Assembly: GCF_907165195.1 (NCBI RefSeq)
Contig: NZ_OU015584.1
Location: 1,054,001 to 1,118,000, forward strand
DNA length: 64,000 nt
Origin: Parvicella tangerina
Lineage (GTDB): Bacteria > Bacteroidota > Bacteroidia > Flavobacteriales_D > Parvicellaceae
Reading direction: 5' to 3'
The notes beneath the pieces are model-generated. The model saw only the letters and a list, made by a program, of their open reading frames with translations, ran no database searches and was not told the origin of the DNA. Every line of letters begins with the position of its first letter. Position 1 is the first letter of the stretch. The position numbers were made by a program, and so were the translations under genes. Shown here piece by piece: positions 6,554 through 62,152 of this stretch.

Positions 6554-7306
6554 TTAGAATAAAAAGATCTTTAAAATCAGAAATAACATAAATCCAAAAC
6601 TAAAGTACCACGCTTTATCGTCCATCCAATCGTGCTTGATATATTTTTTTCGAGTGTACTGGACTAGCTTCTTTCTGATATGGTTTCTAAAGACAAAGCC
6701 AAGTAAAATACCCAAAATACCACAAACAAAGTGCGCAGTATTACCAAGTACAATCTTCCCAACCAGATCAGACTGTGCATCAAAATAGATCGGGATGATG
6801 GAGAATACAACTGGAGCAACTAACCAAAGCGCTATTTGAATTCCCCAAAGTGTTTTATAATAATCGTCAAATACGGTGTTCGTCTTTACATATCGCCCCT
6901 CAAATAAGACGATAAACATCATCCCTGAGTAGGTCATGATAAGTGGGGTTAATCCATGTCCGATCATTAACAACAATCGATGAATAAGGATGTAAGCAAC
7001 ATAGGATATTAACGTGGCTACCAAAAAGCGGAAACTTCCAATAACTTTTTCAAGAAATGAAGCGACAAAGTAGAAGAGAACCACGTTGGCAAGTAAATGT
7101 ATAATCGTTGTAGTCGTGCTGTAACCGTGACAGAAAGGTACAGTCATTCTTGTTGTAAAAGAAACCCCTAGAGAGTCATGTACTCCATAATTTAACCTTA
7201 GCTGAGGAGCGATAATCAGCATCACGGTCATCAATAAAGCTGTTATTACCAGAACCGCACTAACACGTGGTTTAATTCTGAGGTCACTTCTTATCTGGTC
7301 AAACAT
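6554..7306 (-). CDS. Rhomboid-like membrane protein with degenerate active-site motif
   Basis: A 250-residue polytopic protein with about six or seven helices. Rhomboid features are HLLANVVLFYF around residues 70-80 (the family HLxxN motif), an MTYSGMMF segment with Ser127 where family members have GxSG, and GNTAHFVCGILGILLG with His192 in the place of the catalytic His. The first Gly of GxSG is replaced by Thr, so the Ser/His dyad may be intact but the oxyanion turn is altered. It may be an inactive rhomboid or an unusual active one. Its start overlaps the end of the helicase gene by 8 nt. Confidence 0.6.
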   Translation of the reverse strand: MFDQIRSDLRIKPRVSAVLVITALLMTVMLIIAPQLRLNYGVHDSLGVSFTTRMTVPFCHGYSTTTTIIHLLANVVLFYFVASFLEKVIGSFRFLVATLISYVAYILIHRLLLMIGHGLTPLIMTYSGMMFIVLFEGRYVKTNTVFDDYYKTLWGIQIALWLVAPVVFSIIPIYFDAQSDLVGKIVLGNTAHFVCGILGILLGFVFRNHIRKKLVQYTRKKYIKHDWMDDKAWYFSFGFMLFLILKIFLF

Positions 7307-10300
7307 GGATGATTGAAATTTTATCTATCGACAAATATATCAAATACAACTTAATCGGTTTTTGATAGATATGTTCGAGTACATGTCCATATTTTAGTAT
7401 TTGCTGTCTGTGTTGTGCCGACTCACTGCCTGTTTTGAAATCGAGCACAATAATTTCATTTTCTTTTATCAAGACTTTATCTGGGCGAAGAATTTCTCCA
7501 TGAGATGCAGCAATACTTCTTTCGGACATGACCTCAAGTGTTCCTTGAAATAAGGATTGAATCTTGCTGCTTTTCGTATAGCTTTCCAAGATTGTCTCAA
7601 TCGAAGATCTTCTGGGCTGCCATTCTTTATGTTTCTTGATAAACTGATCAAAGGTCTTTGGAGCATCCTTCAATACATCGATGTCTTGCAGGAGTTCGTG
7701 TATGATCATACCCCAACTGCGCTCTGAGTAGGTGTCTCCTTCCTTCTCCTCATGATTTGGCGTAGCTAAGATTAATGTGTTTCTCCAGGTTTTTGTCTTC
7801 TTAGTTGAAAGATGTAAAACCTGTGAATAGGAGTCGCCTGTTTTTGAGTGATAGCGAGTTGGAGTCCCAATAGCTAACTTATTTTCGGAGCTATCATAGT
7901 TTTCGTGAGATTCAATTAGATTGATCTGATTTTTCACCAGTGATGAAGCTCGGTTTTCTTCGAGGTGAATGTATAAGCGGTTTTCAGCTCGAGTGTAGGC
8001 TACGTAAATTAAGTTAATGAGGTCTAAGGTGGTTAACTCTTCATTGTCATTCTTTGTTTTTTGGATGTTTTCATCAGGAATGTTCTTTCCTGGGTTCATG
8101 TTGATTTCATTCAGCCCTAAATCACTGATTAATTCACTTGAAAGCCATAATGAATCGTTGCTGCTATTGTCGATCCGTCTCGGAATAAAAACCACAGGGA
8201 ATTGAAGTCCTTTTGACTTATGAATAGTCATTATCGTAATGGCATTCGTGTTTTCTGGAGGTACAACGCTGCTGTTTAAGATTTTCTCTTCAAAATAGTC
8301 AATAAAACGATTGGTCTGTTGACCATTCTTTTGCTGGAAATCGTAGGTGGCGTTTAATAGCCTGTCAACATAGAGGTCTTCTCTCGATATTTCCAGTGTC
8401 CTCAGAAGGTAATCTACCTGATCAAATATAGAAAGGGTGGTGAAGAACGACTTTTCGAACATCGGTATTTCCTGACTTAAAAACTCATCAAACTTATACC
8501 CCTTGCTAAAGAAGTTGTTTTCGGCAGCAGGTATCCTGTATTTCTGAAAAAGACGAAATAACCCTTTCTGATCATAGTAGGAGAAGACGCTAAGAACATT
8601 TTCATCAGTTGGTCTGCTCAAAGCTTTGAGAAAGGCAAGGATCAACTTTACGTCATTGGAGTCACTCAGTAATAAACTTTCCTGAGAGGAAACCGGAAGA
8701 TCATTTTCTTTGAGGTACGCTGCGAGTTCGGTTCCCTCACTGTTTCTTCGAACCAGAATACACAGGTCACGAAATGAATATCCATCTTTCAGGCAAGAAT
8801 CAATTTGGTTCAGAAGGTCTTTGTCGTACGGATGGTCCGTGTTATAATCTGTTTTCGATTTTTTAATGGAAACCTCTACATAGCCTATTTCCTCCCGTTT
8901 AGGGTGTTGTTGGATGTCGGTGTAAGTGTTGTGAAGTAAAGAAGATTCAAGACTTGACATCATTTTCGGGAATAGCCAGTTGTTGAACTGAATCACGGCT
9001 TTTGCAGAACGATAATTATCCTCTAGTACGTAGCCTTCATGACTGTTTTGAAAACTTTGGTTAATCACTGCAGATTCCGGAGTGTTGAAACTAACATTGG
9101 GCAGGTCGATGAATTGCTGAGCATTTCCTCCTCTCCATCTATAAATCGATTGTTTCGCATCTCCAACAATGAGGCTTTCGTTGCCACTGGCCAGTGAGTC
9201 ATGAATAAGCGGAATCAGATTTTGCCATTGTAAAGTAGAGGTGTCTTGAAATTCATCAATAAAATAGTTTTCGAAGCGAGCACCAATCTTTTCGTAGATG
9301 TACGGAGCAGATTCTTTACTAATGATATCAGATATGATTTGGTTTAACTCACCGATCAATAGGATGTTATTGTCTTTTTTTAACTTTTCTATTTGTCGTT
9401 GAACATCATTTAATAAGGCAAAAGAGAGTAAGTTTTTATCTATATTTCTAAGAAATATCTCTTGATTGATGTTGGTGTTTGTTTGCAGAAATAGCTGTTG
9501 TAACTTGTGATCATTTGTATTGATGATGTTGACCAGTTCAGGGAGTTCTTTTTCCGCTTTTTTGGAAATCCATTTACCTTCTTTGATGTTGTTGATTTGG
9601 GTTTCTGATAGCACATCCGGAACTTTGTTGTAATCATCAATTCCATTAAGGATTTTGGTGTATTTTGAATTGCCGAATTTTAGCTCACTCAGATACTCGC
9701 CAAGAATTGATTGGATTTTCACACTGTTTCCTATGGACGCTGTTCTTAAGGACTTGATCTTGTCCTTTATTTCTTTTCTAACGTCAACAAAAAAAGAAAG
9801 GTCTTTGTCTTTGTAGAATTCAAGTTTTTCTACAGATTCTTCTTTTCCAAGAATTTTTGCTCTTTCATTAAGAGCATACTCAATATTGGGTTGATCCTCC
9901 AGATCAATGAGCTGTTGGTAGTATTCAATAAGGATTCTTGTTAACTGTTCATCATTTCCCAGTTCTTGTAAAACTTCATCTATGCATCGAGCTGTAATGC
10001 CATCGAAGTCAAAAGTGAGCTCAAAGTTGGTGGTAAGTCCCAATTCGCGGGAAAATGATCGGATGATTCGGTGAACGAACTTGTCAATGGTGAGTATGTT
10101 TAAATGCCCATAGTGATGTAGAATGTTTGTGAGTAGGCTGTCTGATTTTTCAGCTAGCTCCATAGGAGACAAACCAGTTGATCGAACATAATCCTCAATG
10201 AAACTGGTATCCTCTCCTTTTTTTAGCTTTTTTAAACCTTGCAAAACCCGTTCTTTCATCTCTTTTGACGCCTTGTTTGTAAACGTAATTGCCAGAATTC

Positions 10301-10436
10301 GTCTGAACTTATCGGGGTTTTTGGCTTTTAAAATGAGCGAAAGGTAATTAAGTACCAGTTGGTAGGTTTTTCCACTGCCAGCGGATGATTTGTATATTTT
10401 CAGCGAGGGTTGTTTCGTTTCCAAGTTGCGCTCCAT
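7299..10436 (-). CDS. UvrD/RecB-type helicase-nuclease (AddA-like)
   Basis: A 1045-residue superfamily 1A DNA helicase with a C-terminal PD-(D/E)XK nuclease. It has Walker A (SSAGSGKTYQ, about residues 17-26), motif Ia (ILAITFTNKASKEMKERV), motif II with DEFQDTSTLQW, GDAKQSIYRWRGG (motif III), and motifs V/VI (MTIHKSKGLQFPVV, VAYTRAENRLYI). Near the end comes IVLDFKTG, a nuclease core motif. Such proteins resect double-strand breaks for recombination, usually with an AddB-like partner, and none is seen here. I prefer the ATG at 10436 to an in-frame one at 10472 because a -7-like box lies at 10448-10455, between them. Confidence 0.88.
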   Translation of the reverse strand: MERNLETKQPSLKIYKSSAGSGKTYQLVLNYLSLILKAKNPDKFRRILAITFTNKASKEMKERVLQGLKKLKKGEDTSFIEDYVRSTGLSPMELAEKSDSLLTNILHHYGHLNILTIDKFVHRIIRSFSRELGLTTNFELTFDFDGITARCIDEVLQELGNDEQLTRILIEYYQQLIDLEDQPNIEYALNERAKILGKEESVEKLEFYKDKDLSFFVDVRKEIKDKIKSLRTASIGNSVKIQSILGEYLSELKFGNSKYTKILNGIDDYNKVPDVLSETQINNIKEGKWISKKAEKELPELVNIINTNDHKLQQLFLQTNTNINQEIFLRNIDKNLLSFALLNDVQRQIEKLKKDNNILLIGELNQIISDIISKESAPYIYEKIGARFENYFIDEFQDTSTLQWQNLIPLIHDSLASGNESLIVGDAKQSIYRWRGGNAQQFIDLPNVSFNTPESAVINQSFQNSHEGYVLEDNYRSAKAVIQFNNWLFPKMMSSLESSLLHNTYTDIQQHPKREEIGYVEVSIKKSKTDYNTDHPYDKDLLNQIDSCLKDGYSFRDLCILVRRNSEGTELAAYLKENDLPVSSQESLLLSDSNDVKLILAFLKALSRPTDENVLSVFSYYDQKGLFRLFQKYRIPAAENNFFSKGYKFDEFLSQEIPMFEKSFFTTLSIFDQVDYLLRTLEISREDLYVDRLLNATYDFQQKNGQQTNRFIDYFEEKILNSSVVPPENTNAITIMTIHKSKGLQFPVVFIPRRIDNSSNDSLWLSSELISDLGLNEINMNPGKNIPDENIQKTKNDNEELTTLDLINLIYVAYTRAENRLYIHLEENRASSLVKNQINLIESHENYDSSENKLAIGTPTRYHSKTGDSYSQVLHLSTKKTKTWRNTLILATPNHEEKEGDTYSERSWGMIIHELLQDIDVLKDAPKTFDQFIKKHKEWQPRRSSIETILESYTKSSKIQSLFQGTLEVMSERSIAASHGEILRPDKVLIKENEIIVLDFKTGSESAQHRQQILKYGHVLEHIYQKPIKLYLIYLSIDKISIIHV

Positions 10437-10464
10437 TGATTTTACGCTAAAAATAACAAATTGA

Positions 10465-10496
10465 TTTGCCAATCCATGTATTTAGCAGTAAATTTG
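10465..10496 (+). promoter_or_regulatory. Promoter TTTG-N20-TAAATTTG directly upstream of the DUF2452 gene
   Basis: TTTG at 10465-10468 and TAAATTTG at 10489-10496 match the Bacteroidota -33/-7 elements with a 20-bp spacer. The start codon follows only 5 nt after the -7 box, so the transcript may be leaderless or nearly so. It also excludes the longer reading of this gene that would begin at 10466. Confidence 0.55.
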
Positions 10497-10501
10497 ATTT
10501 G

Positions 10502-10945
10502 ATGAGTGATAAAAAACAAAATATCCAGAATCCTATAGATAAGGATACCATTACCGAAACTCCGGGTACATTGACTTATGGGCATCATCGAGGAAGTCTT
10601 CCTGTAGCTCCAACTAAAGAGGGGCAGATGAAAGGTCAGGCGCTTGCAGCGATGGAACATCAAACGGATATGCAGCTCGACCAAATTAAAAAACAAATGG
10701 AGTTGTTAGCAGCACAGGCTTCAAAAATTCAGCAGCGTGTTACCGTTTCTGAGCAGATCTATGGTGCAGAAATGAGGTTTGAGCCCCTAATAAATCATGT
10801 TTATCATCTCTATGAAAAAGAAGATAATAAGCATGTGTTGTCGTTAATTCACCCCAAGGATTGGGGAAGAAAAGGTTGTCCTTTTAAATTTGTTGCCACT
10901 GTAAGATTGTTAGCTGATCACACTTGGGATATCTTGGAAGATTAA
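10502..10945 (+). CDS. DUF2452 domain protein
   Basis: A 147-residue cytoplasmic protein starting MSDKKQNIQNP. The central part (MEHQTDMQLDQIKKQMELLAAQ, broken here after MELL) is helical, and the C-terminal part contains FEPLINHVYHLYEKEDNK then LSLIHPKDWG and a final VRLLADHTWDIL. This is the DUF2452 signature as I remember it. No function is known for the family. It is divergent from the helicase gene with 65 bp between starts and is followed 7 nt later by a small T9SS-sorted protein. Confidence 0.8.
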   Translation: MSDKKQNIQNPIDKDTITETPGTLTYGHHRGSLPVAPTKEGQMKGQALAAMEHQTDMQLDQIKKQMELLAAQASKIQQRVTVSEQIYGAEMRFEPLINHVYHLYEKEDNKHVLSLIHPKDWGRKGCPFKFVATVRLLADHTWDILED

Positions 10946-10952
10946 ACCGAAG

Positions 10953-11558
10953 ATGATGAAACTTAAGTTTTTCATAGCGCTTCTTTTTGCTGGCTTTAGT
11001 TCGTATGGTCAGGATATTACTTTTGTGTCTGATTTTGAGCTGCTCGAGGTTCAGAATGGCATTTTCGTGAATTGGGAAATTGATAGCGGTTATACTTGCC
11101 AGGGAGTAGATATTCTGCGCTCTGATGATGGAGTAGACTTCTACGAAGTTGGCCACATTTCTGGTGTTTGTGGAAGTTTATCGAAGTCAGTGGCTTATTC
11201 TTTTTTAGATGATAGCCCTTCTCCCGGTATAACGAATCATTACCGGTTAAAGTTAAACGGAAAGGGATATACGGAGATTTTGAGTCTGTTTTACCAGAGC
11301 GTTCCTGATCAAGGAGTGTTAGTTTTTCCGAATCCATCTTTGGATAGAAATGTAACGGTAAAATATGCAAACCCCAATCAGGAGAAAATGCAGATTGAGA
11401 TCTATGATATTAATGGGCACTTGGTCTTTAGACAAATTTCTGCAACTAATGAAGTACGAATTAATCTAGGGGCTTATCAAAGTGGTGCTTATATAGTTCG
11501 GGTTAGTTCACAAGAAGAATCAAGAACATTGGATTTCTCTACGTTAATTCTGAATTAA
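10953..11558 (+). CDS. Small exported protein with T9SS type A sorting domain
   Basis: A 201-residue protein with a signal peptide ([20 protein letters not shown]) and a fibronectin/jelly-roll-like N-terminal domain whose [19 protein letters not shown] pattern is typical of T9SS cargo. It ends in a Por secretion tail: [17 protein letters not shown], then [14 protein letters not shown] and [13 protein letters not shown]. Type A tails direct export across the outer membrane by the type IX system and anchoring to A-LPS. No catalytic domain fits in the remaining ~110 residues. Its stop overlaps the convergent Kazal gene's stop by 4 nt. Confidence 0.8.
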
Positions 11559-11758
11559 GGACATTCACCTGCCGTGTAATCTACACCAGCACATTCCGCT
11601 TCGCAGGAGTTTCCATATGTTTTATCGTTACAACCACAAACTGGGTCATATTGAAGGGTGCAAATACAATCAGGATTAGTTGTTGCGGTACAATTTGATT
11701 TTTCACAAGAAGTGAGCCCCAAGGAAGTCAGTAAAAATAGGTAAGTTATTTGCTTCAT
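11555..11758 (-). CDS. Kazal-type protease-inhibitor lipoprotein
   Basis: A 67-residue protein with a lipoprotein signal ending LTSC (Cys18). The rest is one Kazal domain, with the pattern [18 protein letters not shown], an upstream CIC pair and a final YTAGEC. Kazal domains inhibit serine proteases by a canonical loop; here the P1 region falls in the CTLQYDPVC segment. As an outer-membrane-linked lipoprotein it could protect the cell from its own or foreign secreted proteases. The stop codon shares TTAA with the stop of the convergent T9SS gene. Confidence 0.85.
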
Positions 11759-11791
11759 TGAGAACTCAAACGCAGTTTAAAGTATTTTATT

Positions 11792-12016
11792 TTAAACAGC
11801 CTCCACTTTTGTGATCTCTGGCAGAGAAGATTTCAGCGCTTCTTCCAGACCAGCTTTAAGCGTCATCGCACTCATGTTACAAGTTTTACATGCACCGATG
11901 AGTTTTACTCGAACCACGTTTTCATTGGTGATTTCCACCAACTCCATATCACCCCCATCACTATGCAGGTAGGGACGCAATTGCTCGATTGCCGCATTTA
12001 CTTTTTCTTCAAGCAT
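11792..12016 (-). CDS. NifU-like Fe-S cluster carrier (Nfu C-terminal domain)
   Basis: A 74-residue single-domain Nfu protein. It starts with the helix MLEEKVNAAIEQLRPYLHSDGGDMELVEI and has the CxxC iron-sulphur ligand motif in GACKTCNMSAMTLKAGLEEAL (each broken across this sentence's parts in the sequence at 11880-11990). Such proteins assemble or carry [4Fe-4S] clusters to client enzymes. It lies 14 nt downstream of mrp, another Fe-S carrier, so a joint cluster-delivery role is likely. A TATCTTTG box at 12021-12028 (minus) sits 4 nt before the ATG and may give a second, leaderless transcript. Confidence 0.93.
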   Translation of the reverse strand: MLEEKVNAAIEQLRPYLHSDGGDMELVEITNENVVRVKLIGACKTCNMSAMTLKAGLEEALKSSLPEITKVEAV

Positions 12017-19020: not shown

Positions 19021-20172
19021 GTGATCTCCTATCTAGTAGCAACATTCCAAAAGCAAAATGTATTCAACAAGCTGGTATTGTGGTTGAATCTTTTTGTTAT
19101 TCTGCTATTACTAATTAGCTATACCGCACCATTTATTAATCCGAAGACTTCTGTTTTTTTTGCATACATGGGGTTGTTGTATCCCGTTTTCGCTGGTGTT
19201 AATTTACTTTTTTCGGTTTACTGGGTCTTATGGAAAAAACACCTTTTTATCTATTCACTAGCGGCCATCATGCTCGGGTTATTATCCTTTAGTCGCTTTT
19301 TTCAAATGACGTTCTATCAGCCCGCATCAGAGCATACGAATAAGATCGAAGTAATGAGCTTTAATGTAAGACTATTTGATCTTTATAATTGGACAGGAAA
19401 CCTCGAAAGCAAGGAAAATATTCAGAAGTTTATTAAGCAGGAGAATGTTGACGTTATTTGCTTTCAGGAATACTATAGAGGTGTTAAGGTGCATTTCTCG
19501 GTGCGGGAGTTTATGGAACAAGAAGTTGGGTATACCTACTGCTATGAGCATATCACAACCTCAGCTAAAGAGAAGGATGGTGTTGGAAACAACCTGTTTG
19601 GATCAGCCATATTTTCTAAATATCCATTTATTGATTCTGGTTATGTGGAGTTTGAGAACGATGAAAATAATCACGTGTCCTGGATAGATATTGTCAAAGG
19701 AGAGGACACATTGCGGATTGTTAATGCACACATCGGGTCTATGCGCTTACAAAATGCCGATTATCAACTCATCGGAGGGAATGATAACAAGAAGTGGGCA
19801 CGCGAAAAACAGTTTCCGCAAGATATTTTTACGAGGATGACTAGGGGGTTTTACAGACGAGAAGAGCAGTTGGTAACATTTAAAAAATTCTTAAGCACCT
19901 CACCTTATCGAGTTGTGGTTTGTGTAGATCTAAATGATACTCCGAATTCCTATGCCTATAATGAAATGGTTGAAAAACTGAAAGATGCCTTCATGATCTC
20001 TGGTTGGGGATTGGGAAGTACCTACGTAGGAGAGAATATCTTTAATCGAATCATGCCAGTTAATCGCATTGATTACATCTTTCACAGCGAAGGAATAGAT
20101 TCTAGGAATTTTACTACGCACAAGGAAAAGTTGTCAGACCATAAGGCCATTTCTTGTGAGGTTTGGTTTTAG
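19021..20172 (+). CDS. Endonuclease/exonuclease/phosphatase (EEP) family membrane protein
   Basis: A 383-residue protein with three N-terminal hydrophobic segments (about 15-100), followed by an EEP domain. Motifs are MSFNVRLFD, DVICFQEYY (metal-binding Glu), DLNDTPNSYAY and IDYIFHS, then SDHKAI near the end. The substrate (DNA, inositol phosphate or lipid) cannot be told from sequence. The start is GTG, 14 nt after the rhomboid gene, and an ATCTTCG-type -7-like element lies just upstream. Its stop overlaps a remnant methyltransferase end on the other strand. Confidence 0.85.
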   Translation: MISYLVATFQKQNVFNKLVLWLNLFVILLLLISYTAPFINPKTSVFFAYMGLLYPVFAGVNLLFSVYWVLWKKHLFIYSLAAIMLGLLSFSRFFQMTFYQPASEHTNKIEVMSFNVRLFDLYNWTGNLESKENIQKFIKQENVDVICFQEYYRGVKVHFSVREFMEQEVGYTYCYEHITTSAKEKDGVGNNLFGSAIFSKYPFIDSGYVEFENDENNHVSWIDIVKGEDTLRIVNAHIGSMRLQNADYQLIGGNDNKKWAREKQFPQDIFTRMTRGFYRREEQLVTFKKFLSTSPYRVVVCVDLNDTPNSYAYNEMVEKLKDAFMISGWGLGSTYVGENIFNRIMPVNRIDYIFHSEGIDSRNFTTHKEKLSDHKAISCEVWF

Positions 20173-20211
20173 CCAATCACAAAAATACAAGGACGTTTGT
20201 GCAAGTTGGGA
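20169..20211 (-). pseudogene. 3' remnant of a second SAM-methyltransferase gene copy
   Basis: On the minus strand this reads PNLHKRPCIFVIG then stop, matching PNLHKRPCIFVLD-stop at the end of the intact methyltransferase gene at 25977. The 27 bp at 20185-20211 are identical to 25993-26019. The last five codons differ only by L/I, D/G and synonymous changes, which points to a true coding relic and not chance. The remnant stop shares TTAG with the EEP stop. Upstream of it the reading frame no longer matches the family. Confidence 0.75.
20185..20211. repeat. 27-bp direct repeat, left copy
   Basis: Identical to 25993-26019 and lying inside the methyltransferase 3' remnant. With the right copy it flanks a 5.8-kb segment carrying only the giant T9SS gene. 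Confidence 0.9.
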
Positions 20212-20334
20212 TACAAAAGTTGTTGTTTCAAATGAATTTAAGTATATTATTCTGTTTTAAATAGATTCATGCCCTCCAATCAAAACGATAAGCGAAGATT
20301 TTTGTCAGTCTAGTAGTGTAACACTAGGCAACTA

Positions 20335-20363
20335 TTTGAAATGTAATTAGTTGTTTACTTTAG
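20335..20363 (+). promoter_or_regulatory. Promoter TTTG-N17-TACTTTAG of the giant T9SS gene
   Basis: TTTG at 20335-20338 and TACTTTAG at 20356-20363 (7 of 8 to TAnnTTTG at the defined positions) are separated by 17 bp, about 67 nt before the ATG at 20431. Confidence 0.4.
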
Positions 20364-20430
20364 CACCCCCCTCGATGAAGAATCTTCCGTTATTAAGAAT
20401 AGGCCGAACTATAAAATCTTACTTTGACTA

Positions 20431-23400
20431 ATGCTCAATAGGAACTACCTCATACTAATTACCTTATTGCTGCAATCCTCGCTGTTCGCACAAAATTGGA
20501 TTACTCGCGCTGGAGGTGGAGGAATGGATGAATCCTATGATGTAGAAGTAGATGCTTCGGGCAATTATTATTCAACAGGGTATCTATCTACATCAACTGA
20601 TTTTGGAGGGTCTATTGTGGTATCCTCAGCAGGTGCAAGTGATATATACGTTGCTCAGTCGTCTAATTCAGGAAACTTTGTTTGGGCAAAAACATTTGGG
20701 GGAAACTTTGCAGACAGAGGGTATGATATTGATGTTGATGATGATGGAAGTTCGGTGATTACTGGCTTTTTTACAGGTACAGCGCAATTTGATGGAGTTA
20801 CTCTGATAAGTACCACTAATTCACAAGACCTATTTGTGGTTAAATTAGATAATACAGGTAACGTTGTGTGGGCAATATCTGATGGAGGATCGGGGGCTGA
20901 AACAGGATATGCAGTAGCATTTGATCACTCAGGAAACGTTGTTGTAACAGGTCAATTCAGAGGAGTTACCTCTATAGCTGGTAATACTTTTGTTTCCGAA
21001 GTTGATCCAAATACTGGTTTGGAAACATTTGATATTTTCGTTGCCAAATATGATAGCAACGGAAGCCCTCTGTGGTCTCATTCAGGTACTTCGATTTATG
21101 ATAATAGGGGATTGGCTATAGATGTAGATCATGATAACAATATTGTTCTAACGGGCCAATTTACCGATACGCTAACCCTTGCAGGGGTAGTTTATCCCAA
21201 TACAATCTATAATGCTGGTTTGATTTGCCAATTGGATTCGCTAGGAAATGTTAATTGGTTTCGGAGGTTGGGGGCTTATCAAACCATGGCTTATGACGTT
21301 GAAGTGAATGCACAAGGGGAAATCTTTACCACAGGTGACTTTATGGGGAACATGTTCATTATTGATTCTACCTTGACCAATTACTCTATTTCAGGAAATT
21401 ACACTTACCATGTCTTTCTTTTGAAGTTTGATGTTGGCGGTCATGTATTGTGGGGCAACTCTTTTAGCTCTGAAGATAGAGTTTCATCAAAGGCTATTGC
21501 ATTACATCAAAATGGAGATATATTCATTACTGGAACTTTCAAATGCAACCTTACTGATTTTACAGATTCTCTGGGAACAGGACTATTTAATTCTGTTGGT
21601 TTTTATGATGTTTTTCAAGCAAGATTTTTATCGGATGGATCAAGAGATTGGGTTATGCAAACAGGAGGGCAGCGAGATGACTATTCTTCTGGAATAGCGG
21701 TTTTTAACACTAATTATCCTGTGGTAAGTGGAAGTTTTGATGAATATTTGAATTTTCCTGTAAATGCTGTTTCATTTGGTTCAGGGTTGTCTGGGAATAG
21801 TTTTGTACAACCCAATGGTTTTGGAAGTTATTATAGTTGTGGCCAATCGTATAAGTTTTTGAAATCTAATGGAGGAAAGGATATATATGTTGGAAATACC
21901 TATCATAGCTTGAATCAACATTACTACTATTACGATAACTTTTCTTTGCCGAGTGGAACTTGTTCGGGGTGGGTGGAACCATGCTTTAATCAGTTATCTA
22001 CAGAACAATGTTTGCCAGATTCAGTTGAAGCATGTGTAATGATGAATCTAACCATTTATCCCAATACTGTGGGCGCTGGAATTTCCCAAGACGCTCAGTT
22101 CTATTCAACAAGTCAGCCTTATCACCCGTATAACTCAAATAATGGTTACGCTGGATATATCCACCACATTGGTCCATACTGGGACTATTCTTACAACCTA
22201 TCGAATGATTCTGTCGATTACATAGGGGTTAGTGCTACAACAAATGTATTTGCCAACGTTTCAAGAAAGGATGGTTGTGATAGTTATTCAGACACTATTC
22301 ACGTTACTATTCATCCACAACCTAATATGCCGCTTCTATCCGATGATCATGGATTTAATAATCAGGATAGTGTTTGGTCAACTATTTATGCCTGTTTTCC
22401 AGACACCGCAAATTTTGAATTAGCCGGAATTGGTCTTCAAGATAGTATCTCCTTAATAAGTGAGCTTGGGTACGCTTTTTTGCAAGACTCAACAGGGGCA
22501 GTTTTCGATACAGATGATATTGATGTGTTCATAGTTGATTCCAACGGATGTGAAAACACGAAAGAAATTCATATTCAGATGGATCACCCCGTTCTTGATA
22601 CCATTGTGCCATATTTGATGTTATTTGATCAGGTTGATTTTAATGATAGTATTGAAATATGCAAAGGAGATAAAATCAATGTTCGCGTTTATGATTCATT
22701 ACATACTATCGTAGGAGATATTTATGAATATTTTTATACAGATGCTTTATATCATCAAAATTGGAATATTGGAGTGTCTAATAATTGTTTGAATAATGAA
22801 TGTCTTTCCGTGGATTATTATCCTTTAAACTCCGGATGGGTTCCATTTGAAGTGAATTTTACACTAGGTTATGATAATTACTGTGGTTTAGACACCACTC
22901 ACTATTTTATTTCGGATTCATTCTATGTACATCTAAACCCATTACCGCCACAACCCCCCATTGTGCTAGATGGAGATCAGGATTTTTGTCCAGGAGACAC
23001 TGTTAATGTTTGGGCAGATACCGTTGTTCAAGGAGGGGAATGGAGTGGCCCATTTATCGGTGTTAATAATGCGGGTGATAGCCTTTATGTAATCCTGCCA
23101 GGAACCTACAGTTACGAGTATGTAGTTGTAGACTCAATTACGGGTTGTAATGCTGATTATGAGGAAATACTTTACTTGAACAGTAAGTCTCCTCCAAACA
23201 TTTATATAGACTCTGGAAACAATATTATTTGTCCATTTGATTCGCTTTTGCTAACGGCAGACCCGGGTATTGCATATGATTGGGTTGGTCCTGATGGAAT
23301 GTCCATTGGGAATACACAAAGCATTTATGTACATGACCCTGGATTTTATCACTGCATTATAACAGACGCTGATCTCTGCGAAATGAATTCCAACTCTATC

Positions 23401-25974
23401 GAGCTCATAGAATATTCAACACCCTTCTTAGAAGTGTTACCAGGTAACGAGCTTTGTCACTATGGTAGTATTGATATTCTTGCAGTTCATACTGGTTCCC
23501 CTTCATTCAATTGGCTAAATCCCTCGGGAATTACGAGTAATCAAATAACCGTTACAACTGCTGGTACATATATTTGTGAAGTTTCTCAATGCGGCATATC
23601 AACAATGGACAGTGTAGTCATTACTAATTCTACCATTATGCCAATTATTACGCCTCTAACAGATACAGTGATTTGTCAAGGTGATACAGCCGAACTAACT
23701 GTTACACCATCTGCCTTGATGGACTATGAATGGAGTAATAATGTTGGTTTTAGCACGTACGCCCAAATTACGGAACCAGGTACTTATACGGTTACAGCAT
23801 ATGATTACACTGGATGTTCAGGTACGTCTGCTCCTGTGACGATCGCTTTTCATCCGAGTTCTTCAACTCCAGTTGCAGTTAATGATACTGTTTGTCTTGG
23901 AATGGATGCACAACTAACTACAAACGCAGTTTATGACGTGAATTGGTATGATCAAAATGGTCAACTCCTAGCTACTACTGATACACTATCCATTTCCAGT
24001 TTGACTGCGGATACTGTTTTCTTCGTGACTCAAAGCGATGCGTTCTGTGAAAGTGAATCAGTTCCTGTTTTTGGAATAGTCTCTACCGCATCCTTAGAGA
24101 ATCAAATCACGTCTGTAGATACTGTATTCTGTGCAGGTGATACTGGCGTGTTTGTGTCTGACCAATTTGCAGTTGAATACGAATGGACATTGCCTGATGG
24201 AGTAACCATCAATAGCTCTTCTTCACTTCTTGAACTATCGAATATGGATACTATGATGACAGGTTGGCTGACCTTACAACTCTCTGACCAATTTTGTTCA
24301 GGAGAGGTAGACTCTATTAAAATCAGTGTGCACTCTTTGCCAGACTTGTTTCTTCCTATAGAAGATACGATATGTCAGGATGATCATTTGATAGTCAGTA
24401 TTCTGTCAGGTCATGGAGATTCCATTTATGTTGATCAAGTATTTCAATCTACCGATTCAGTAAATTTCTATGCGGATACTGGAAGCTATCAAATTACATC
24501 GGTAAATAGTGTTGGATGCTCTGTTGATAGCATATACCATTTATTTGGTCACGATTTGCAAAATCCAATAACAATATCCGATGATGTGCTCTGTGGAGAT
24601 TCTATTTATATTCTAAACTTTCCAGATTCAGTTTTTTATGAGTGGAATAGTCAAGTAAATTATGGAATTTCAGACACTTTGTTTTTGACTAATGATTCGG
24701 TTAATATTCCATATTGGCAGATTGATTCGAATGGCTGTGAGACATCATTACATGCATTCAACCTATTGATGACCAGTGATTCGGCTGAAGCCATCTTTTA
24801 TGGAGATTCGATAGTTTGCGAGGGTGATTCGGTAGTATTAGTAGGGTTGGGTAATGCTGATAATTATTATTGGGAATCATCAGGTGGGGCGTTACTTACA
24901 GGAAATTCAATAGTTTTTACACCGAGTCAAGGAGAGTTTATTTGGTACTACACAGAAACAGATGGATGCTGGAGCGATTCTGTATTCCTGTATCCGACAG
25001 TAGTTGAAGAGCTATTAACGCCAGTAGTTCAAATCAGTGATTCAGTCTATTGCTTCGGAGACTCGATAACATTGGAGTTTAATAACTTCTATGATTCACT
25101 TTCTTATTGGTTGATGCCTAACCAAGTAAATTCTTATGATAGCGTAATGCATCTCGTGGTTGGAGCAAATAATATTGGAGATTATTACGCAATCACCAGT
25201 AATCAGGGGTGTGTTTCTATGGAGTTGCAAACGGTTAATGTCTCTGGTTTTCCGATAAGCCCACTTTCTTTTTACCCTGATACGATTGAAGTGTGCGAAG
25301 TCGACTCTATTAGTTTTAATCTATTTGTAGATACGAATCTGCAATATCAGTATGAGATTGATGGTACGATTTATACGGATAGTCTCATAGAGCTATCTGC
25401 TCCAATATCATTTATTGAAGATCCGATCTTTATTGCATTAACGGATACTAACGGTTGTTCGCTTACAGATTCTGTTCAACTAGTTGTTTACGAACAACCC
25501 TTGTATGATCTTGTGGATACAATAATTTGTAATGGCGATACATTACAAATTGATTTAAACAATGATTTTGAGGAGTATTTTTGGTCTGATGGGACAACCA
25601 TTTCTTCAAATGTATTCACAGATAGCGGTTATTATTTTCTAGAAGTTTTTAATGGACCTTGTTATAACTTCACTGACTTCAGTCTTGCGACCATGGATTG
25701 TACCCCTCAAATGGCGAATGTGTTTACTCCAAACAATGATGGAGTAAATGATGTTTATCGATTCGTTTCTGGAGAATTAAAGTCTATGCATTTGATTATT
25801 TTTAATCGATGGGGTGCAGTTGTATTTGAGTCAAGTAAACCATACCTGCAGTGGGATGGAACTAATAATTATGGGAAGCCTTTAGCAGATGGAGTCTATT
25901 ATTACGTGTTAGAAGGGGAGACCACAGAACTCTTTCTATTTGAAGAATCAGGGTTTATTCAGTTGATGAGGTAA
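20431..25974 (+). CDS. Giant cell-surface protein with gliding-motility-type (T9SS type B) C-terminal domain
   Basis: A 1847-residue secreted protein with a signal peptide (LILITLLLQSSLFAQ). Residues ~25-470 contain SBBP-like beta-propeller repeats of the form DVDDDGSSVITGFF and WAKTFGGNFADRGYDI. The central ~1200 residues are Ig-like beta modules with many ICQGDT or DTVFCAGDT motifs and Asp/Ser/Thr-rich character. The end (VFTPNNDGVNDVYRF, then IFNRWGAVVFESS, WDGTNNYGKPLADGVYYY) is a gliding-motility-associated type B sorting domain. It is probably a surface adhesin. Its stop is 2 nt from the stop of the convergent methyltransferase gene, and the gene is flanked by direct repeats. Confidence 0.85.
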   Translation: MLNRNYLILITLLLQSSLFAQNWITRAGGGGMDESYDVEVDASGNYYSTGYLSTSTDFGGSIVVSSAGASDIYVAQSSNSGNFVWAKTFGGNFADRGYDIDVDDDGSSVITGFFTGTAQFDGVTLISTTNSQDLFVVKLDNTGNVVWAISDGGSGAETGYAVAFDHSGNVVVTGQFRGVTSIAGNTFVSEVDPNTGLETFDIFVAKYDSNGSPLWSHSGTSIYDNRGLAIDVDHDNNIVLTGQFTDTLTLAGVVYPNTIYNAGLICQLDSLGNVNWFRRLGAYQTMAYDVEVNAQGEIFTTGDFMGNMFIIDSTLTNYSISGNYTYHVFLLKFDVGGHVLWGNSFSSEDRVSSKAIALHQNGDIFITGTFKCNLTDFTDSLGTGLFNSVGFYDVFQARFLSDGSRDWVMQTGGQRDDYSSGIAVFNTNYPVVSGSFDEYLNFPVNAVSFGSGLSGNSFVQPNGFGSYYSCGQSYKFLKSNGGKDIYVGNTYHSLNQHYYYYDNFSLPSGTCSGWVEPCFNQLSTEQCLPDSVEACVMMNLTIYPNTVGAGISQDAQFYSTSQPYHPYNSNNGYAGYIHHIGPYWDYSYNLSNDSVDYIGVSATTNVFANVSRKDGCDSYSDTIHVTIHPQPNMPLLSDDHGFNNQDSVWSTIYACFPDTANFELAGIGLQDSISLISELGYAFLQDSTGAVFDTDDIDVFIVDSNGCENTKEIHIQMDHPVLDTIVPYLMLFDQVDFNDSIEICKGDKINVRVYDSLHTIVGDIYEYFYTDALYHQNWNIGVSNNCLNNECLSVDYYPLNSGWVPFEVNFTLGYDNYCGLDTTHYFISDSFYVHLNPLPPQPPIVLDGDQDFCPGDTVNVWADTVVQGGEWSGPFIGVNNAGDSLYVILPGTYSYEYVVVDSITGCNADYEEILYLNSKSPPNIYIDSGNNIICPFDSLLLTADPGIAYDWVGPDGMSIGNTQSIYVHDPGFYHCIITDADLCEMNSNSIELIEYSTPFLEVLPGNELCHYGSIDILAVHTGSPSFNWLNPSGITSNQITVTTAGTYICEVSQCGISTMDSVVITNSTIMPIITPLTDTVICQGDTAELTVTPSALMDYEWSNNVGFSTYAQITEPGTYTVTAYDYTGCSGTSAPVTIAFHPSSSTPVAVNDTVCLGMDAQLTTNAVYDVNWYDQNGQLLATTDTLSISSLTADTVFFVTQSDAFCESESVPVFGIVSTASLENQITSVDTVFCAGDTGVFVSDQFAVEYEWTLPDGVTINSSSSLLELSNMDTMMTGWLTLQLSDQFCSGEVDSIKISVHSLPDLFLPIEDTICQDDHLIVSILSGHGDSIYVDQVFQSTDSVNFYADTGSYQITSVNSVGCSVDSIYHLFGHDLQNPITISDDVLCGDSIYILNFPDSVFYEWNSQVNYGISDTLFLTNDSVNIPYWQIDSNGCETSLHAFNLLMTSDSAEAIFYGDSIVCEGDSVVLVGLGNADNYYWESSGGALLTGNSIVFTPSQGEFIWYYTETDGCWSDSVFLYPTVVEELLTPVVQISDSVYCFGDSITLEFNNFYDSLSYWLMPNQVNSYDSVMHLVVGANNIGDYYAITSNQGCVSMELQTVNVSGFPISPLSFYPDTIEVCEVDSISFNLFVDTNLQYQYEIDGTIYTDSLIELSAPISFIEDPIFIALTDTNGCSLTDSVQLVVYEQPLYDLVDTIICNGDTLQIDLNNDFEEYFWSDGTTISSNVFTDSGYYFLEVFNGPCYNFTDFSLATMDCTPQMANVFTPNNDGVNDVYRFVSGELKSMHLIIFNRWGAVVFESSKPYLQWDGTNNYGKPLADGVYYYVLEGETTELFLFEESGFIQLMR

Positions 25975-25976
25975 GA

Positions 25977-26678
25977 TTAATCCAAAACAAATATACAAGG
26001 ACGTTTGTGCAAGTTGGGAATATTTTTCTTCCAAAAATGAACTGGATGCGTTTGGATGAACTCAGCTTCTAGCGTAATATCTGCCGCAATACACAACATC
26101 GTTTCAGGGTGTAACGTAGCGAGTAAATCTTCCAGAAACTGTTGGTTTCTAAAAGGTGTTTCCATGAATAGCTGGGTAGTGCCTTTTCTCGCATCACTCT
26201 CTAACCCTCTAATCTCGTGTTTGCGTTTTGATTTGTCTCTGGTGAGGTAGCCATTGAATTTAAATGATTGTCCATTAAAGCCACTTCCCATCAAAGCCAT
26301 CAATATAGAATTAGGACCAACATAGGGAGTTACGCGAATACCTCTTTTATGAGCAATACTTACCAGATCACTGCCAGGGTCAGCAACGGCAGGACAACCT
26401 GCCTCAGAAATCATCCCAACATCATGACCATCCAAACATGGATTAAGAAAAGAATTCACCTGCTCTGGTTGAGTGTGTTTGTTGAGTTCATAAAAGCTGA
26501 TGCTATCAATATCAACTTCTCGATCAATCTTTTTAAGGTATCGTCTGGTTGTCTTAATGTTCTCTACAACAAGGTGTTTAAATTGAATGATGTGCTCTAA
26601 AATGTTATTGGGGATAACATCATTTACAGCGCTGTCTCCCAGTGTCATTGGCAATAGATAAAGTCGACCTTTTTTCAT
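25977..26678 (-). CDS. SAM-dependent methyltransferase (RsmI-like tetrapyrrole-methylase fold)
   Basis: A 233-residue protein of the TP_methylase superfamily. MKKGRLYLLPMTLGDS is the start, and the MISEAGCPAVADPGSDLV motif (residues ~92-109) and YVGPNSILMALMGSGF match RsmI, which methylates C1402 of 16S rRNA. RsmI itself usually has a longer C-terminal domain, and this shorter paralogue is common in Bacteroidota. Its exact target is uncertain. Its 3' end is duplicated at 20169-20211, on the other side of the giant gene. Confidence 0.85.
   Translation of the reverse strand: MKKGRLYLLPMTLGDSAVNDVIPNNILEHIIQFKHLVVENIKTTRRYLKKIDREVDIDSISFYELNKHTQPEQVNSFLNPCLDGHDVGMISEAGCPAVADPGSDLVSIAHKRGIRVTPYVGPNSILMALMGSGFNGQSFKFNGYLTRDKSKRKHEIRGLESDARKGTTQLFMETPFRNQQFLEDLLATLHPETMLCIAADITLEAEFIQTHPVHFWKKNIPNLHKRPCIFVLD
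25993..26019. repeat. 27-bp direct repeat, right copy
   Basis: Identical to 20185-20211. It lies inside the 3' end of the intact methyltransferase gene, close to its stop codon. Confidence 0.9.
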
Positions 26679-26732: not shown

Positions 26733-27542
26733 ATGAATAAAATTAGAATACATTTGCCGAAATTTTTTGAAATGAAAGCTATCGCCTACCATCTTGACAC
26801 AAGACCCAACATGTCGAACTTCCATCAGCTGGATGGCTATACGGTACTTAAACGTGATCGTTATTTTGTGCTCTTAGAAAAGGAAGACAACAAAACGGTT
26901 TATCTGAAAGACTATGGTAGTGTTGTCTTTTTAGGTTGGTCAGGACATGAGATCAAGATCTTTCTCAAGGATAAGTTTAGTGTGTCTGATATGACCAAAC
27001 TTAAGTCAGAAGAGTTTGAAGTAGAGCAATCGGGAGTTGCTGATCACCGTGTGAATTTCGATACGATCATTGTCCCTAACCTTACTACTGAAGTAATTCA
27101 TATCATTAGCTTAAACCTCGCTCAATCTGTTGTGTTGTCTCATTATCAGGAAATGGCTGACGATATTTTATCAGCATCATCTGCCGTTACTGCCGAGTTA
27201 AAAGATCAGGGAAGAGTACCCATAAGTAGAAAGGAGTTAAGGAAACTATTGGGTAGAGCGATTGTTTTAAAGAATACTGTTGCTGAGAATCTCTATATTT
27301 TTGAAACTCCTGAGTTTGCGAGTAGCGTTGAAGAGTTAGCGCAAATAGACACAGATCTCAATGAGAATTTGGATATTCTCAATCGGTTCAGGAGTTTACA
27401 ACACAACTTAAGTACGGTGACTGACTCGCTCTCTTTCTTAATGGATATTCTTCAGCATAAACACAGCTCTGTCCTCGAATGGATCATTATCCTTTTGATT
27501 CTGATCGAAGTGATTCAAGTCCTTTTTGAAAAGTTAATTTAG
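26733..27542 (+). CDS. RMD1/DUF155 family membrane protein
   Basis: A 269-residue protein. The N-terminal ~120 residues carry the DUF155 fold seen in yeast Rmd1 and mitochondrial RMND1 (VLLEKEDNKTVYLKDYGSVVF, here shown in part). A helical coiled-coil region includes LGRAIVLKNTVAENLYIFETPEF and LQHNLSTVTDSLSFLMDIL. A single C-terminal helix (IIILLILIEVIQVLFEKL) anchors it. In mitochondria RMND1 supports translation; bacterial members are uncharacterised. The stop overlaps the stop of the convergent phosphatase gene by 4 nt (TTAG). Confidence 0.8.
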   Translation: MNKIRIHLPKFFEMKAIAYHLDTRPNMSNFHQLDGYTVLKRDRYFVLLEKEDNKTVYLKDYGSVVFLGWSGHEIKIFLKDKFSVSDMTKLKSEEFEVEQSGVADHRVNFDTIIVPNLTTEVIHIISLNLAQSVVLSHYQEMADDILSASSAVTAELKDQGRVPISRKELRKLLGRAIVLKNTVAENLYIFETPEFASSVEELAQIDTDLNENLDILNRFRSLQHNLSTVTDSLSFLMDILQHKHSSVLEWIIILLILIEVIQVLFEKLI

Positions 27543-27997
27543 GATAGGTGCTTCTCGATAATTAGATCGGTCGCTTTATCGAGCATTTCAAATACGTTCT
27601 TGAATCCTTCTTCACCACCATAATAAGGGTCGGGAACATTGATGTTTTTTCCTGACTCTAATTCGTTCATGATCATGATCACTTTTTGAGCTTCAGCTTC
27701 TGATTCGGTCATATTCAGAACATTATTGTAGTTGGAAGAATCCATAACATAAATGAGGTCGAAGTATTCAATATCTCTTCTCTTAATTTGACGTGAACGT
27801 TGATAAGAGATATCAATACCATTAATAAGAGCAATTTCCATTGATCTCGAATCGGGGTATTCACCATCATGAAGTCCATTGGTTCCAGCAGAGTCGATTA
27901 TGGCCTTCAGGCCTCGTTGATCTACTTTGTGTTGAAGGATTCCATGTGCTAGTGGGGATCTACAGATATTACCCAAACAAACCATTAGTATTTTCAT
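27539..27997 (-). CDS. Low-molecular-weight protein-tyrosine phosphatase
   Basis: A 152-residue LMW-PTP. The start MKILMVCLGNICRSP carries the P-loop CX5R (CLGNICR), and the general-acid loop is VPDPYYGG near residue 117. These enzymes dephosphorylate tyrosine-phosphorylated proteins; the bacterial ones often control capsule or polysaccharide export. No tyrosine kinase or capsule gene is near. I use the ATG at 27997, not one 9 codons upstream, because the P-loop normally lies within the first 15 residues and the pckA terminator runs into the longer version. Confidence 0.9.
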   Translation of the reverse strand: MKILMVCLGNICRSPLAHGILQHKVDQRGLKAIIDSAGTNGLHDGEYPDSRSMEIALINGIDISYQRSRQIKRRDIEYFDLIYVMDSSNYNNVLNMTESEAEAQKVIMIMNELESGKNINVPDPYYGGEEGFKNVFEMLDKATDLIIEKHLS

Positions 27998-28005
27998 AAG
28001 CAAAC

Positions 28006-28042
28006 ATAAAAAAGCGTCACCCACAAAATATGAATGACGCTT
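28006..28042 (-). terminator. Rho-independent terminator of pckA
   Basis: On the minus strand AAGCGTCA pairs with TGACGCTT (28035-28042 and 28012-28019) around a 15-nt loop, followed by a T run. It starts 20 nt after the pckA stop. Confidence 0.85.
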
Positions 28043-59998: not shown

Positions 59999-62152
59999 AT
60001 GATGATGATGAAAAATTTATTACATATAGTTTTTGTTCTGCTTACGGTAACTATTGCCCACGGACAAGCTGAGTATCAATCTACTGGTTCTGGCGGTGCT
60101 TATGCCCTTTCAATTCCAGCTAATATTGATGCGCTAACACCTGGATTATCTTTTACGTTCAAAGCAAATCATGTGAGCGCCAATCCATCTACGCTTAATG
60201 TAAATGGTTTAGGAGCCGTTACAATCATGAAAGGTGTTTCAACTAATCTAGATGTCAATGACATTCTAGCTGGTCAGGTGGTAACAGTGGTATATGATGG
60301 TACGAACTTTCAAATGACTTCAGCTCCCGGGAGCATCGGAGCAAGCGGTAGCGACTCCGTTATTGCAGATGCTGATAGTGATACAGAGATCAATGTGGAA
60401 GCAGCCGCAGATCAAGATGTGATCCATTTTAATCTGGGAGATAATGCTGGTTATCCAGCAGCTGAGTATTTTACGATGATTGGGCCTAGACTGGATGTAA
60501 TTAATTCAGGATGGTCACTGTTTATCGGGAAGGATGCAGGAGTTAATGATGATCTTTCTTCTAATGCGAACACGTTTTTAGGTTATGAGTCTGGTAATCA
60601 GACCACTACCGGAAATCAAAATGTTGCTGTTGGTTATCAATCGTTGAGAAACAATCAGACAGGATTTTTGAATGTGGCCGTTGGTTCAGAAGCTTTGAAA
60701 TCAAATATGGCAGGAAATCAGAACGTAGCGATTGGTCAGCAGTCGTTATTAAATAATAATGCCAACGATAATATTGGTATCGGAAGGCAAACACTTTATA
60801 CGAATACAACGGGAACTCCTAATATTGCGATTGGTTCAAATTCCATGTATGCAAATACGACAGGAGCTGATAATATTGCCATTGGACTTAATTCCCTTCA
60901 ATCAAACACTACAGGATTTAACAATGTCGCTTTTGGTACGGATGCCCTGAGTTCTTCAGATGCCAGTCATAATGTAGCTATCGGAGCAGAAGCCATTGCT
61001 TACGGTACTGCTGGCAATGGAAATGTAGCCATAGGAACAGGGGCATTGTCTTTTTCTAATTCAAACAATAATGTGGCAATAGGTTATCAGTCCATGCGAA
61101 ATAATGCGGCTGGGTTTTCAAATACCGCTGTTGGATACGCAACTTTACCTAACAGTACAGGAAATTACAATGCCGTACTTGGACAATCTGCTGGAAATGC
61201 TCTTGGTGGAGGCAACCGAAACGTATTTATTGGTTTTGCGAGTGGTGGAAGTCTTACGAATGGGTCAGGTAATATTTTTATAGGAAATCAATCTGGAGGA
61301 ACGGTATCTTCTGCAAGTAACAAGTTGTACATTGAAAACTCCAACTCGGATACTCCTTTGATCTATGGTGATTTTAGTTCGGACGAGTTGGCGTTTAATG
61401 CAAAAGTAGGGATCGGTACATTAAATCCTAACAATAAGCTTTCAATTGTTACAGATGCTTCAGATGGTTTGGAAATGCAAACATATGGTGCTGGAAATAC
61501 AAATATGATGTCTTTTCTTCATTTTGGAGGTACTATTGGCAGTCCATCTACTACTACTAGTGGAACTTCTATTGGGACATCCCTCTACTCTGGTTATGGA
61601 ACATCAACAGATGTTGCTGCTGCAAGAATTAGAGTGGTTGCCGAATCTGTCTTCACTGATGCGAGTTCTCCAGGAGCTATTCTATTAGAAACGACTGCAA
61701 CAGGATCTAATTTTCCTACAGAGAAATTAAGAATCACATCAGAAGGAAATATTGGAGTGGGTAGTAATGCTCCTTCGGTAAAACTTGAAGTTGCTAATGG
61801 TGATGTGGCGATTTCAAATGATGATCATCGCTTGATGCGACTGGATGATGGTAGTGATTTGCTACCTGTTGCTTATGGTGTAATTAATGATGGGACAATA
61901 GAGTCGGCAGCAAGTACTTCAAACTTTACGGTTGTCAAATTGGGTAATGGTCAATATCAGGTAAACTATATTGGCTCAAGACCGTTTGGTGGCTTGGGAG
62001 AGTTTCAGGTTACTTGTACTCCATATTACCAGGGAGAAACCTTGGTTGCAACCTACCAATATTTAGGAGGCACATCTTTTGAAATATTTTTAACTAACCT
62101 TTCTGATATCCTAACTGATGGTGTCGTTTCATTCGAATTAAGAGTAAAATAA
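59999..62152 (+). CDS. Exported YadA-head/tail-fibre-like repeat protein
   Basis: A 717-residue protein with a signal peptide (NLLHIVFVLLTVTIAHGQ); several ATGs are adjacent, and I take the first at 59999. A TTG 9 nt earlier is the alternative. The N-terminal domain (~150 residues) is nearly identical to that of the next gene. A series of ~24-residue turn repeats follows (NVAVGYQSLRNNQTG, NIAIGSNSMYANTTG), the trimeric-autotransporter head pattern. The end (GVVSFELRVK) lacks a T9SS domain. It lies 9 nt after the upstream fibre gene, in an operon-like array. Confidence 0.78.
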   Translation: MMMMKNLLHIVFVLLTVTIAHGQAEYQSTGSGGAYALSIPANIDALTPGLSFTFKANHVSANPSTLNVNGLGAVTIMKGVSTNLDVNDILAGQVVTVVYDGTNFQMTSAPGSIGASGSDSVIADADSDTEINVEAAADQDVIHFNLGDNAGYPAAEYFTMIGPRLDVINSGWSLFIGKDAGVNDDLSSNANTFLGYESGNQTTTGNQNVAVGYQSLRNNQTGFLNVAVGSEALKSNMAGNQNVAIGQQSLLNNNANDNIGIGRQTLYTNTTGTPNIAIGSNSMYANTTGADNIAIGLNSLQSNTTGFNNVAFGTDALSSSDASHNVAIGAEAIAYGTAGNGNVAIGTGALSFSNSNNNVAIGYQSMRNNAAGFSNTAVGYATLPNSTGNYNAVLGQSAGNALGGGNRNVFIGFASGGSLTNGSGNIFIGNQSGGTVSSASNKLYIENSNSDTPLIYGDFSSDELAFNAKVGIGTLNPNNKLSIVTDASDGLEMQTYGAGNTNMMSFLHFGGTIGSPSTTTSGTSIGTSLYSGYGTSTDVAAARIRVVAESVFTDASSPGAILLETTATGSNFPTEKLRITSEGNIGVGSNAPSVKLEVANGDVAISNDDHRLMRLDDGSDLLPVAYGVINDGTIESAASTSNFTVVKLGNGQYQVNYIGSRPFGGLGEFQVTCTPYYQGETLVATYQYLGGTSFEIFLTNLSDILTDGVVSFELRVK
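60161..60483. repeat. 323-bp near-identical segment, copy 1
   Basis: Matches 62324-62646 with 7 differences in 323 bp, all synonymous. It encodes the shared N-terminal domain of two consecutive fibre proteins. Confidence 0.9.

What the first reader, a model, noticed from the sequence alone, without database searches (positions are those of the whole stretch)
20169..26019. Giant T9SS gene flanked by 27-bp direct repeats that duplicate a neighbouring gene's 3' end
A remnant ending PNLHKRPCIFVIG-stop lies before the giant gene; the intact methyltransferase ending PNLHKRPCIFVLD-stop lies after it. 27 bp are identical. This is the footprint expected when a 5.8-kb segment enters at the 3' end of a gene and the end is rebuilt, like att sites, but no integrase is present. 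The EEP stop still overlaps the remnant stop by 4 nt, suggesting EEP and methyltransferase were originally convergent neighbours.
Basis: partly seen in the sequence, partly recalled or inferred. Interest (0 to 1): 0.75.

Follow-up and report, generated by a model that had tools for sequence, protein, structure and literature searches.

The report
Surface-protein gene inserted beside methyltransferase gene
A large secreted surface-protein gene sits in the junction between two older neighbouring genes and left a 43-base scrap of one neighbour's original end, a well-preserved but fairly ordinary insertion scar in which no mobile-element gene was found.

Summary
Exact 27-bp direct repeats (20185-20211, 25993-26019) flank the 1847-aa T9SS gene; the left copy lies in a 43-bp remnant of the methyltransferase (MT) 3' end. 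The 27-mer occurs only twice in the 3.98-Mb genome, even with 3 mismatches. Congener G002 has EEP and MT convergent, 1 nt apart, nothing between, in long synteny. The remnant keeps the C-terminal Gly of 14 of 15 relatives; today's MT has Asp. So DNA entered at the MT 3' end and the end was replaced.

The att-site reading is only partly supported: no integrase in the window, no second site, no such repeats at 43 other T9SS ORFs, none of the genome's recombinases matched near MT in 80 relatives. The gene family is old and widespread (56 of 399 genomes, own included); its sister in G003 lies elsewhere. Favoured mechanism (inferred): a single crossover at short homology with DNA carrying the giant gene and a diverged MT 3' end. 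Import of a whole giant-MT block, or a decayed integrase element, stays open. One local event; modest interest.

The parts
19021..20172 (+). EEP: endonuclease/exonuclease/phosphatase-family gene, old left neighbour; its stop overlaps the remnant stop by 4 nt
   Evidence: PF03372, 62.3 bits, cut-off 24.5; adjacent to MT in G002
20169..20211 (-). Remnant: last 14 codons (stop included) plus one base of the ancestral MT gene, ...PNLHKRPCIFVIG-stop
   Evidence: 37 of 43 bases equal the intact end
20185..20211 (+). Left copy of the 27-bp direct repeat
20212..20430 (+). Left end of the insert, leader of the giant gene; no resemblance to MT, G+C 0.315
   Evidence: sequence; G+C; promoter/terminator scan of 20100-20500 no better than shuffles
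20431..25974 (+). Giant gene, 1847 aa: SBBP-like propeller N-terminus, Ig_7 domain, T9SS type B C-terminal sorting domain
   Evidence: PF13585 68.6 bits (cut-off 27), PF19081 47.1 (27.3); TIGR04131 46.4 (35); NF047494 79.8, under its cut-off of 400
25977..25992 (-). Replaced end of MT (IFVLD-stop), 2 nt from the giant stop
25993..26019 (+). Right copy of the 27-bp direct repeat, inside the intact MT gene
25977..26678 (-). MT: intact SAM-dependent TP_methylase-family gene, 233 aa
   Evidence: PF00590 30.8 bits (cut-off 27.8); TIGR00096 95.1, under its cut-off 167.9
26733..27542 (+). D1: DUF155/RMND1-family gene between MT and LMWPTP, also absent from G002; a possible second, or the same, insertion
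   Evidence: PF02582 100.1 bits; in 3 of 39 family genomes, own included; not in G002's syntenic stretch
27539..28024 (-). LMWPTP-like gene, old right neighbour of MT (directly adjacent to it in G002)
   Evidence: named from recall, not from a family search; synteny

Best explanation
Shown: in this lineage about 5.8 kb of DNA, holding one gene of a T9SS type B secreted surface protein, was inserted exactly at the 3' end of the MT gene, between MT and its convergent neighbour EEP. The displaced old MT end stayed beside EEP as a 43-bp remnant, and MT got a similar but different end (IFVLD for IFVIG) 2 nt from the giant gene's stop. Inferred: the incoming DNA (a fragment closed into a circle, or something equivalent, perhaps from a related species) carried the giant gene next to a diverged MT-type 3' end and went in by one crossover within 27 bp of identity. 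That gives resident end + core on one side and incoming end + core + resident MT body on the other, with no resident base lost. MT stays complete, so the insertion is harmless to it; what is gained is a large surface protein.
For: Uninterrupted, convergent EEP-MT junction in congener G002 inside synteny that runs from mutL to PEPCK and beyond. Core only twice in the genome. The remnant keeps the Gly seen in 14 of 15 relatives at that position, today's MT has Asp, so the remnant is the old end. The new end still looks like an MT end (IFVL), which suggests it came from an MT homologue. Differences from the remnant cluster outside the core: 0 of 27 against 6 of 16, Fisher p 0.0013 (the core was defined by its identity, so this p is too favourable). 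No resident MT base is missing between the two copies. Circularisation of linear DNA followed by RecA-dependent single crossing-over is described in E. coli (PMC3240628, abstract seen). The giant family is patchy: strong matches in 2 of 39 family genomes and in 56 of 399 order genomes, own included.
Against: No donor with a giant gene convergent to an MT 3' end was found: of the 20 giant-gene stretches fetched from other genomes (of 54 other genomes with strong matches besides G003) and the two G003 contigs, only G164 has MT nearby, on the same strand and on the other side. No circular form was seen. The MT protein does not group firmly with congeners (clade with G001 and G002: p-AU 0.098; with G003 too: 0.18), while EEP and LMWPTP do, which leaves room for an imported MT. 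D1, also absent from G002, is not explained by this event.
Confidence: 0.45

Rival explanations
1. Block replacement: a foreign stretch with giant gene, a complete MT and perhaps D1 replaced the resident MT. The right joint was homologous (in or near LMWPTP), the left joint illegitimate inside the resident MT, 14 codons from its stop, so the resident tail survives. The 27-bp identity is then only a conserved piece shared by two MT alleles.
For: D1 on the other side of MT is also absent from G002 and found in only 3 of 39 family genomes, own included, so one event would explain both. MT does not group firmly with congeners although EEP and LMWPTP do. Pairs of relatives with 77-78% DNA identity have exact runs of 23-24 bp in their last 60 bases. 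Homology-facilitated illegitimate recombination is described (PMC3240628, abstract).
Against: Window MT against 15 relatives (57-64% identity) never shows a run over 17 bp, so the donor would have to be much closer than any relative held; differences cluster outside the core; MT being in the genus clade is not rejected.
Confidence: 0.25
2. Decayed integrase-type element (like a CIME): the repeats are attL and attR of an element that used the MT 3' end as attB, and which lost its integrase or was moved by one acting in trans.
For: Layout: a 27-bp direct repeat, one copy holding the target gene's end and the target gene kept intact. The review PMC5704250 (passages seen) gives 8-60 bp repeats for tyrosine recombinases, 3' ends of housekeeping genes as targets, and CIMEs that keep attL/attR without integration genes. 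The genome has 18 tyrosine-recombinase hits that could act in trans.
Against: No recombinase in the window; no other core copy; one gene only in the insert; no recombinase found near MT in 80 relatives (limited sensitivity); core not in viral contigs (exact 21-mer); insert start not in plasmid records; no repeat at 43 other T9SS ORFs.
Confidence: 0.17
3. Local duplication: the MT end was duplicated on insertion (a long target-site duplication) and the copies diverged afterwards.
For: Both copies end in a similar MT tail.
Against: 6 of 16 bases differ beyond the core and 0 of 27 in it, although the left copy is now non-coding; no transposase or terminal inverted repeat is apparent.
Confidence: 0.06

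Closest known systems
Integration by a single crossover of circularised DNA, and homology-facilitated illegitimate recombination (PMC3240628, abstract seen)
   Same: Short shared sequence at the joint, no dedicated recombinase needed, insert flanked by the shared sequence
   Different: Known from laboratory strains; here only the scar is seen, and donor and intermediate are missing
CIMEs, IMEs and genomic islands in gene 3' ends (PMC5704250 and PMC6764341, passages seen)
   Same: Direct repeats, one holding the target gene's end; target gene remains whole
   Different: No integrase, one gene only, single site, no relatives with other elements at the same gene end
Allelic exchange of T9SS-type surface proteins in Porphyromonas gingivalis (PMC5266723, abstract seen)
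   Same: Surface-protein genes that vary between genomes out of step with the tree
   Different: There alleles and domains are exchanged in place; here a whole gene appears at a new place

Membership tests
CIME / integrase-type element | Direct repeats at both ends, one holding the target gene's 3' end, target gene intact | tested here: met
CIME / integrase-type element | Integrase in the element (not required of a CIME) | tested here: not met
CIME / integrase-type element | The same gene end used as att site by related elements | tested here: not met
   No recombinase match in 80 MT loci by tblastn with this genome's recombinases; sensitivity limited, flanks of varying length
CIME / integrase-type element | Excision or mobilisation | not testable with these tools
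   needs cells or reads
Homology-facilitated illegitimate recombination | One homologous and one non-homologous joint, foreign donor | tested here: inconclusive
   Scar compatible, donor not found
T9SS type B secreted protein | C-terminal sorting domain over the curated cut-off | tested here: met
   PF13585 68.6 against 27; TIGR04131 46.4 against 35
RsmI (TIGR00096) | Score over the curated cut-off | tested here: not met
   95.1 against 167.9; a second homologue of the MT, 25% identical, lies at 3,215,997

The most novel reading that the evidence does not exclude
A recombinase-free, single-gene 'cassette' of a T9SS surface protein moves between gene 3' ends of Flavobacteriales by carrying a look-alike of its target gene's end, served in trans by a chromosomal tyrosine recombinase.
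Probability: 0.07. Interest if true: 0.65.

Novelty: new member of a known kind. Interest (0 to 1): 0.3.

Why it matters
It is a clean fossil of how one large surface-protein gene came to its place: old end, new end and empty site can all be named. It shows that such genes, old and patchy across the order, can change place without an attached recombinase, and that the gap between convergent genes is a harmless landing place. It does not reveal a new system.

Tried and rejected
General mobility of T9SS genes with flanking repeats: rejected for this genome. 43 other T9SS ORFs had no direct repeat over 14 bp between 1.6-kb flanks. One search had picked the wrong ORF in four stretches (L231, L244, L250, L256) and is superseded for them; 3 ORFs were dropped for short flanks. 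The 43 ORFs were found with a home-made CHU_C model in the 43 stretches and need not match the 43 other Pfam hits one to one.

Wider scan for direct repeats of at least 20 bp, 1-15 kb apart, in 414,182 bases (window plus 43 stretches, overlaps counted twice): besides the pair in question, one repeat at 60179/62342 in pieces, one pair each in L243 and L254 (inside giant ORFs by their coordinates), and 21 in L238 that were not printed and whose place was not checked.

A second copy or source of the insert in the genome: none; one 52-bp match at 81% only. Neighbours of the G003 giant gene: one has no match here, the other has three paralogues at 32-34%, so no old site could be named. Giant gene beside MT in a donor: not found; 20 stretches of 54 possible genomes were looked at, besides G003. 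D1 with flanking gene-end remnants: none seen. Core in viral contigs and insert start in plasmids: none. Tree test for an imported MT: undecided. Literature: three listings, passages of two papers, abstract and outline of two; no search was made for this very locus in print.

Full report
What is there. The window lies in a one-contig genome of 3,980,026 bases. EEP (19021-20172, +) is followed by the giant gene (20431-25974, +, 1847 aa) and the methyltransferase gene MT (25977-26678, -). The exact 27-bp repeat is at 20185-20211 and 25993-26019. The left copy is part of a 43-bp remnant of an MT 3' end whose stop overlaps the EEP stop; the right copy is inside the intact MT. The core has no third copy within 3 mismatches. 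The other ORFs listed between the copies lie within the giant gene in other frames.

The genes. The giant protein has the T9SS type B sorting domain (PF13585, TIGR04131), an Ig_7 domain and a weak SBBP-propeller match at its N-terminus. MT is a TP_methylase-family protein under the RsmI cut-off. EEP is of the Exo_endo_phos family. G+C of the giant gene is 0.38, of the whole window 0.391, so composition does not mark it as foreign.

Empty site. In 60 genomes searched with MT and with EEP (own included), by the listed places MT and EEP lie side by side only in G002, of the same genus. Its stretch (L143) has mutL, two rhomboid-like genes, EEP, MT, LMWPTP and PEPCK in the order of the window, with MT (10039-10740) and EEP (10742-11896) convergent and 1 nt apart, and neither giant gene nor D1. 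Of 95 MT loci looked at (three of them double), only this one has EEP beside MT; 82 have at least 1.5 kb past the MT end. So there is one comparator, but a strong one, and the 4-nt overlap of EEP with the remnant in the window agrees with it.

Which end is old. At the third last to last positions of MT, 14 of 15 relatives have a Gly that the remnant keeps (VIG) and the intact MT lacks (VLD). The remnant, beside EEP, is thus the old end. The new end is not random: IFVL is typical of the family.

The giant family. Strong matches (E <= 1e-40) occur in 56 of 399 order genomes, own included; in the family only here and in G003. In G003 the gene is split over two contigs (read here as one gene cut by a contig end; that genome is 74% complete) and its neighbours are others. 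In trees of two parts of the protein the window and G003 copies are sisters (SH-aLRT 97 and 99, with 20 homologues chosen from the best matches). So the gene is not a newcomer from far away; it has either moved within the genus or been passed between its members.

How it got there. Resident tail, core, insert, incoming tail, core, resident body, with no base of the resident MT lost: that is the layout of one crossover between the chromosome and a circle, by an integrase or by short homology. For the integrase there is only the layout. Against it: no recombinase in the window though 18 hits exist elsewhere, a single site, 43 other T9SS ORFs without such repeats, 80 MT loci without a match to this genome's recombinases. 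I therefore favour short-homology recombination (0.45). The contrast 0 of 27 against 6 of 16 differences (Fisher p 0.0013) speaks for two already diverged MT ends that met in the core, but the core was chosen by its identity, so the p is too good.

What speaks for the rival. D1 on the other side of MT is also missing in G002 and rare in the family (3 of 39, own included). MT does not join its congeners firmly, while EEP and LMWPTP do. An import of giant gene, MT and D1 as one block would explain all this in one step; it needs a donor MT with 86% identity (37 of 43) to the resident tail, nearer than any relative held (57-64% over the gene). I give it 0.25.

Known kinds. The scar resembles CIMEs and islands in gene 3' ends (PMC5704250, PMC6764341, passages) and single-crossover or homology-facilitated insertion (PMC3240628, abstract). 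It is filed as a new example of a known kind of insertion, not as a mobile element.

Noticed in passing
window 26733-27542: D1, a DUF155/RMND1-family gene between MT and LMWPTP, absent from the syntenic stretch of G002 and found in only 3 of 39 family genomes, own included; no gene-end remnant beside it.
   Followed up: partly
L146, L147, L148, L149, L150, L151: In six genomes of two other genera of the family a CHU_C gene lies 1.5-1.8 kb upstream of MT, before LMWPTP; the gene between is PorP/SprF in the two tested. These giants are not orthologues of the window's.
   Followed up: partly
L312 8094-14830: G164 (another family) has a relative of the window's giant gene, then one gene, LMWPTP and MT, all on one strand. 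Possibly coincidence, possibly a trace of an old neighbourhood.
   Followed up: partly
L260-L264, L266, L268 (genome 1.799-1.812 Mb and 3.837 Mb): Tyrosine-recombinase genes in close pairs or groups, elsewhere in the genome.
   Followed up: no
window 60179-60483 and 62342-62646: A direct repeat in pieces, 2163 bp apart, beside a large repetitive ORF.
   Followed up: no
window 5179 and 7448: An 18-bp A+T-rich exact direct repeat, 2.3 kb apart, on both sides of the ORF at 6554-7306.
   Followed up: no
genome 3,215,997-3,216,572: A second homologue of the MT, 25% identical; it may be the true RsmI (guess, not tested).
   Followed up: no
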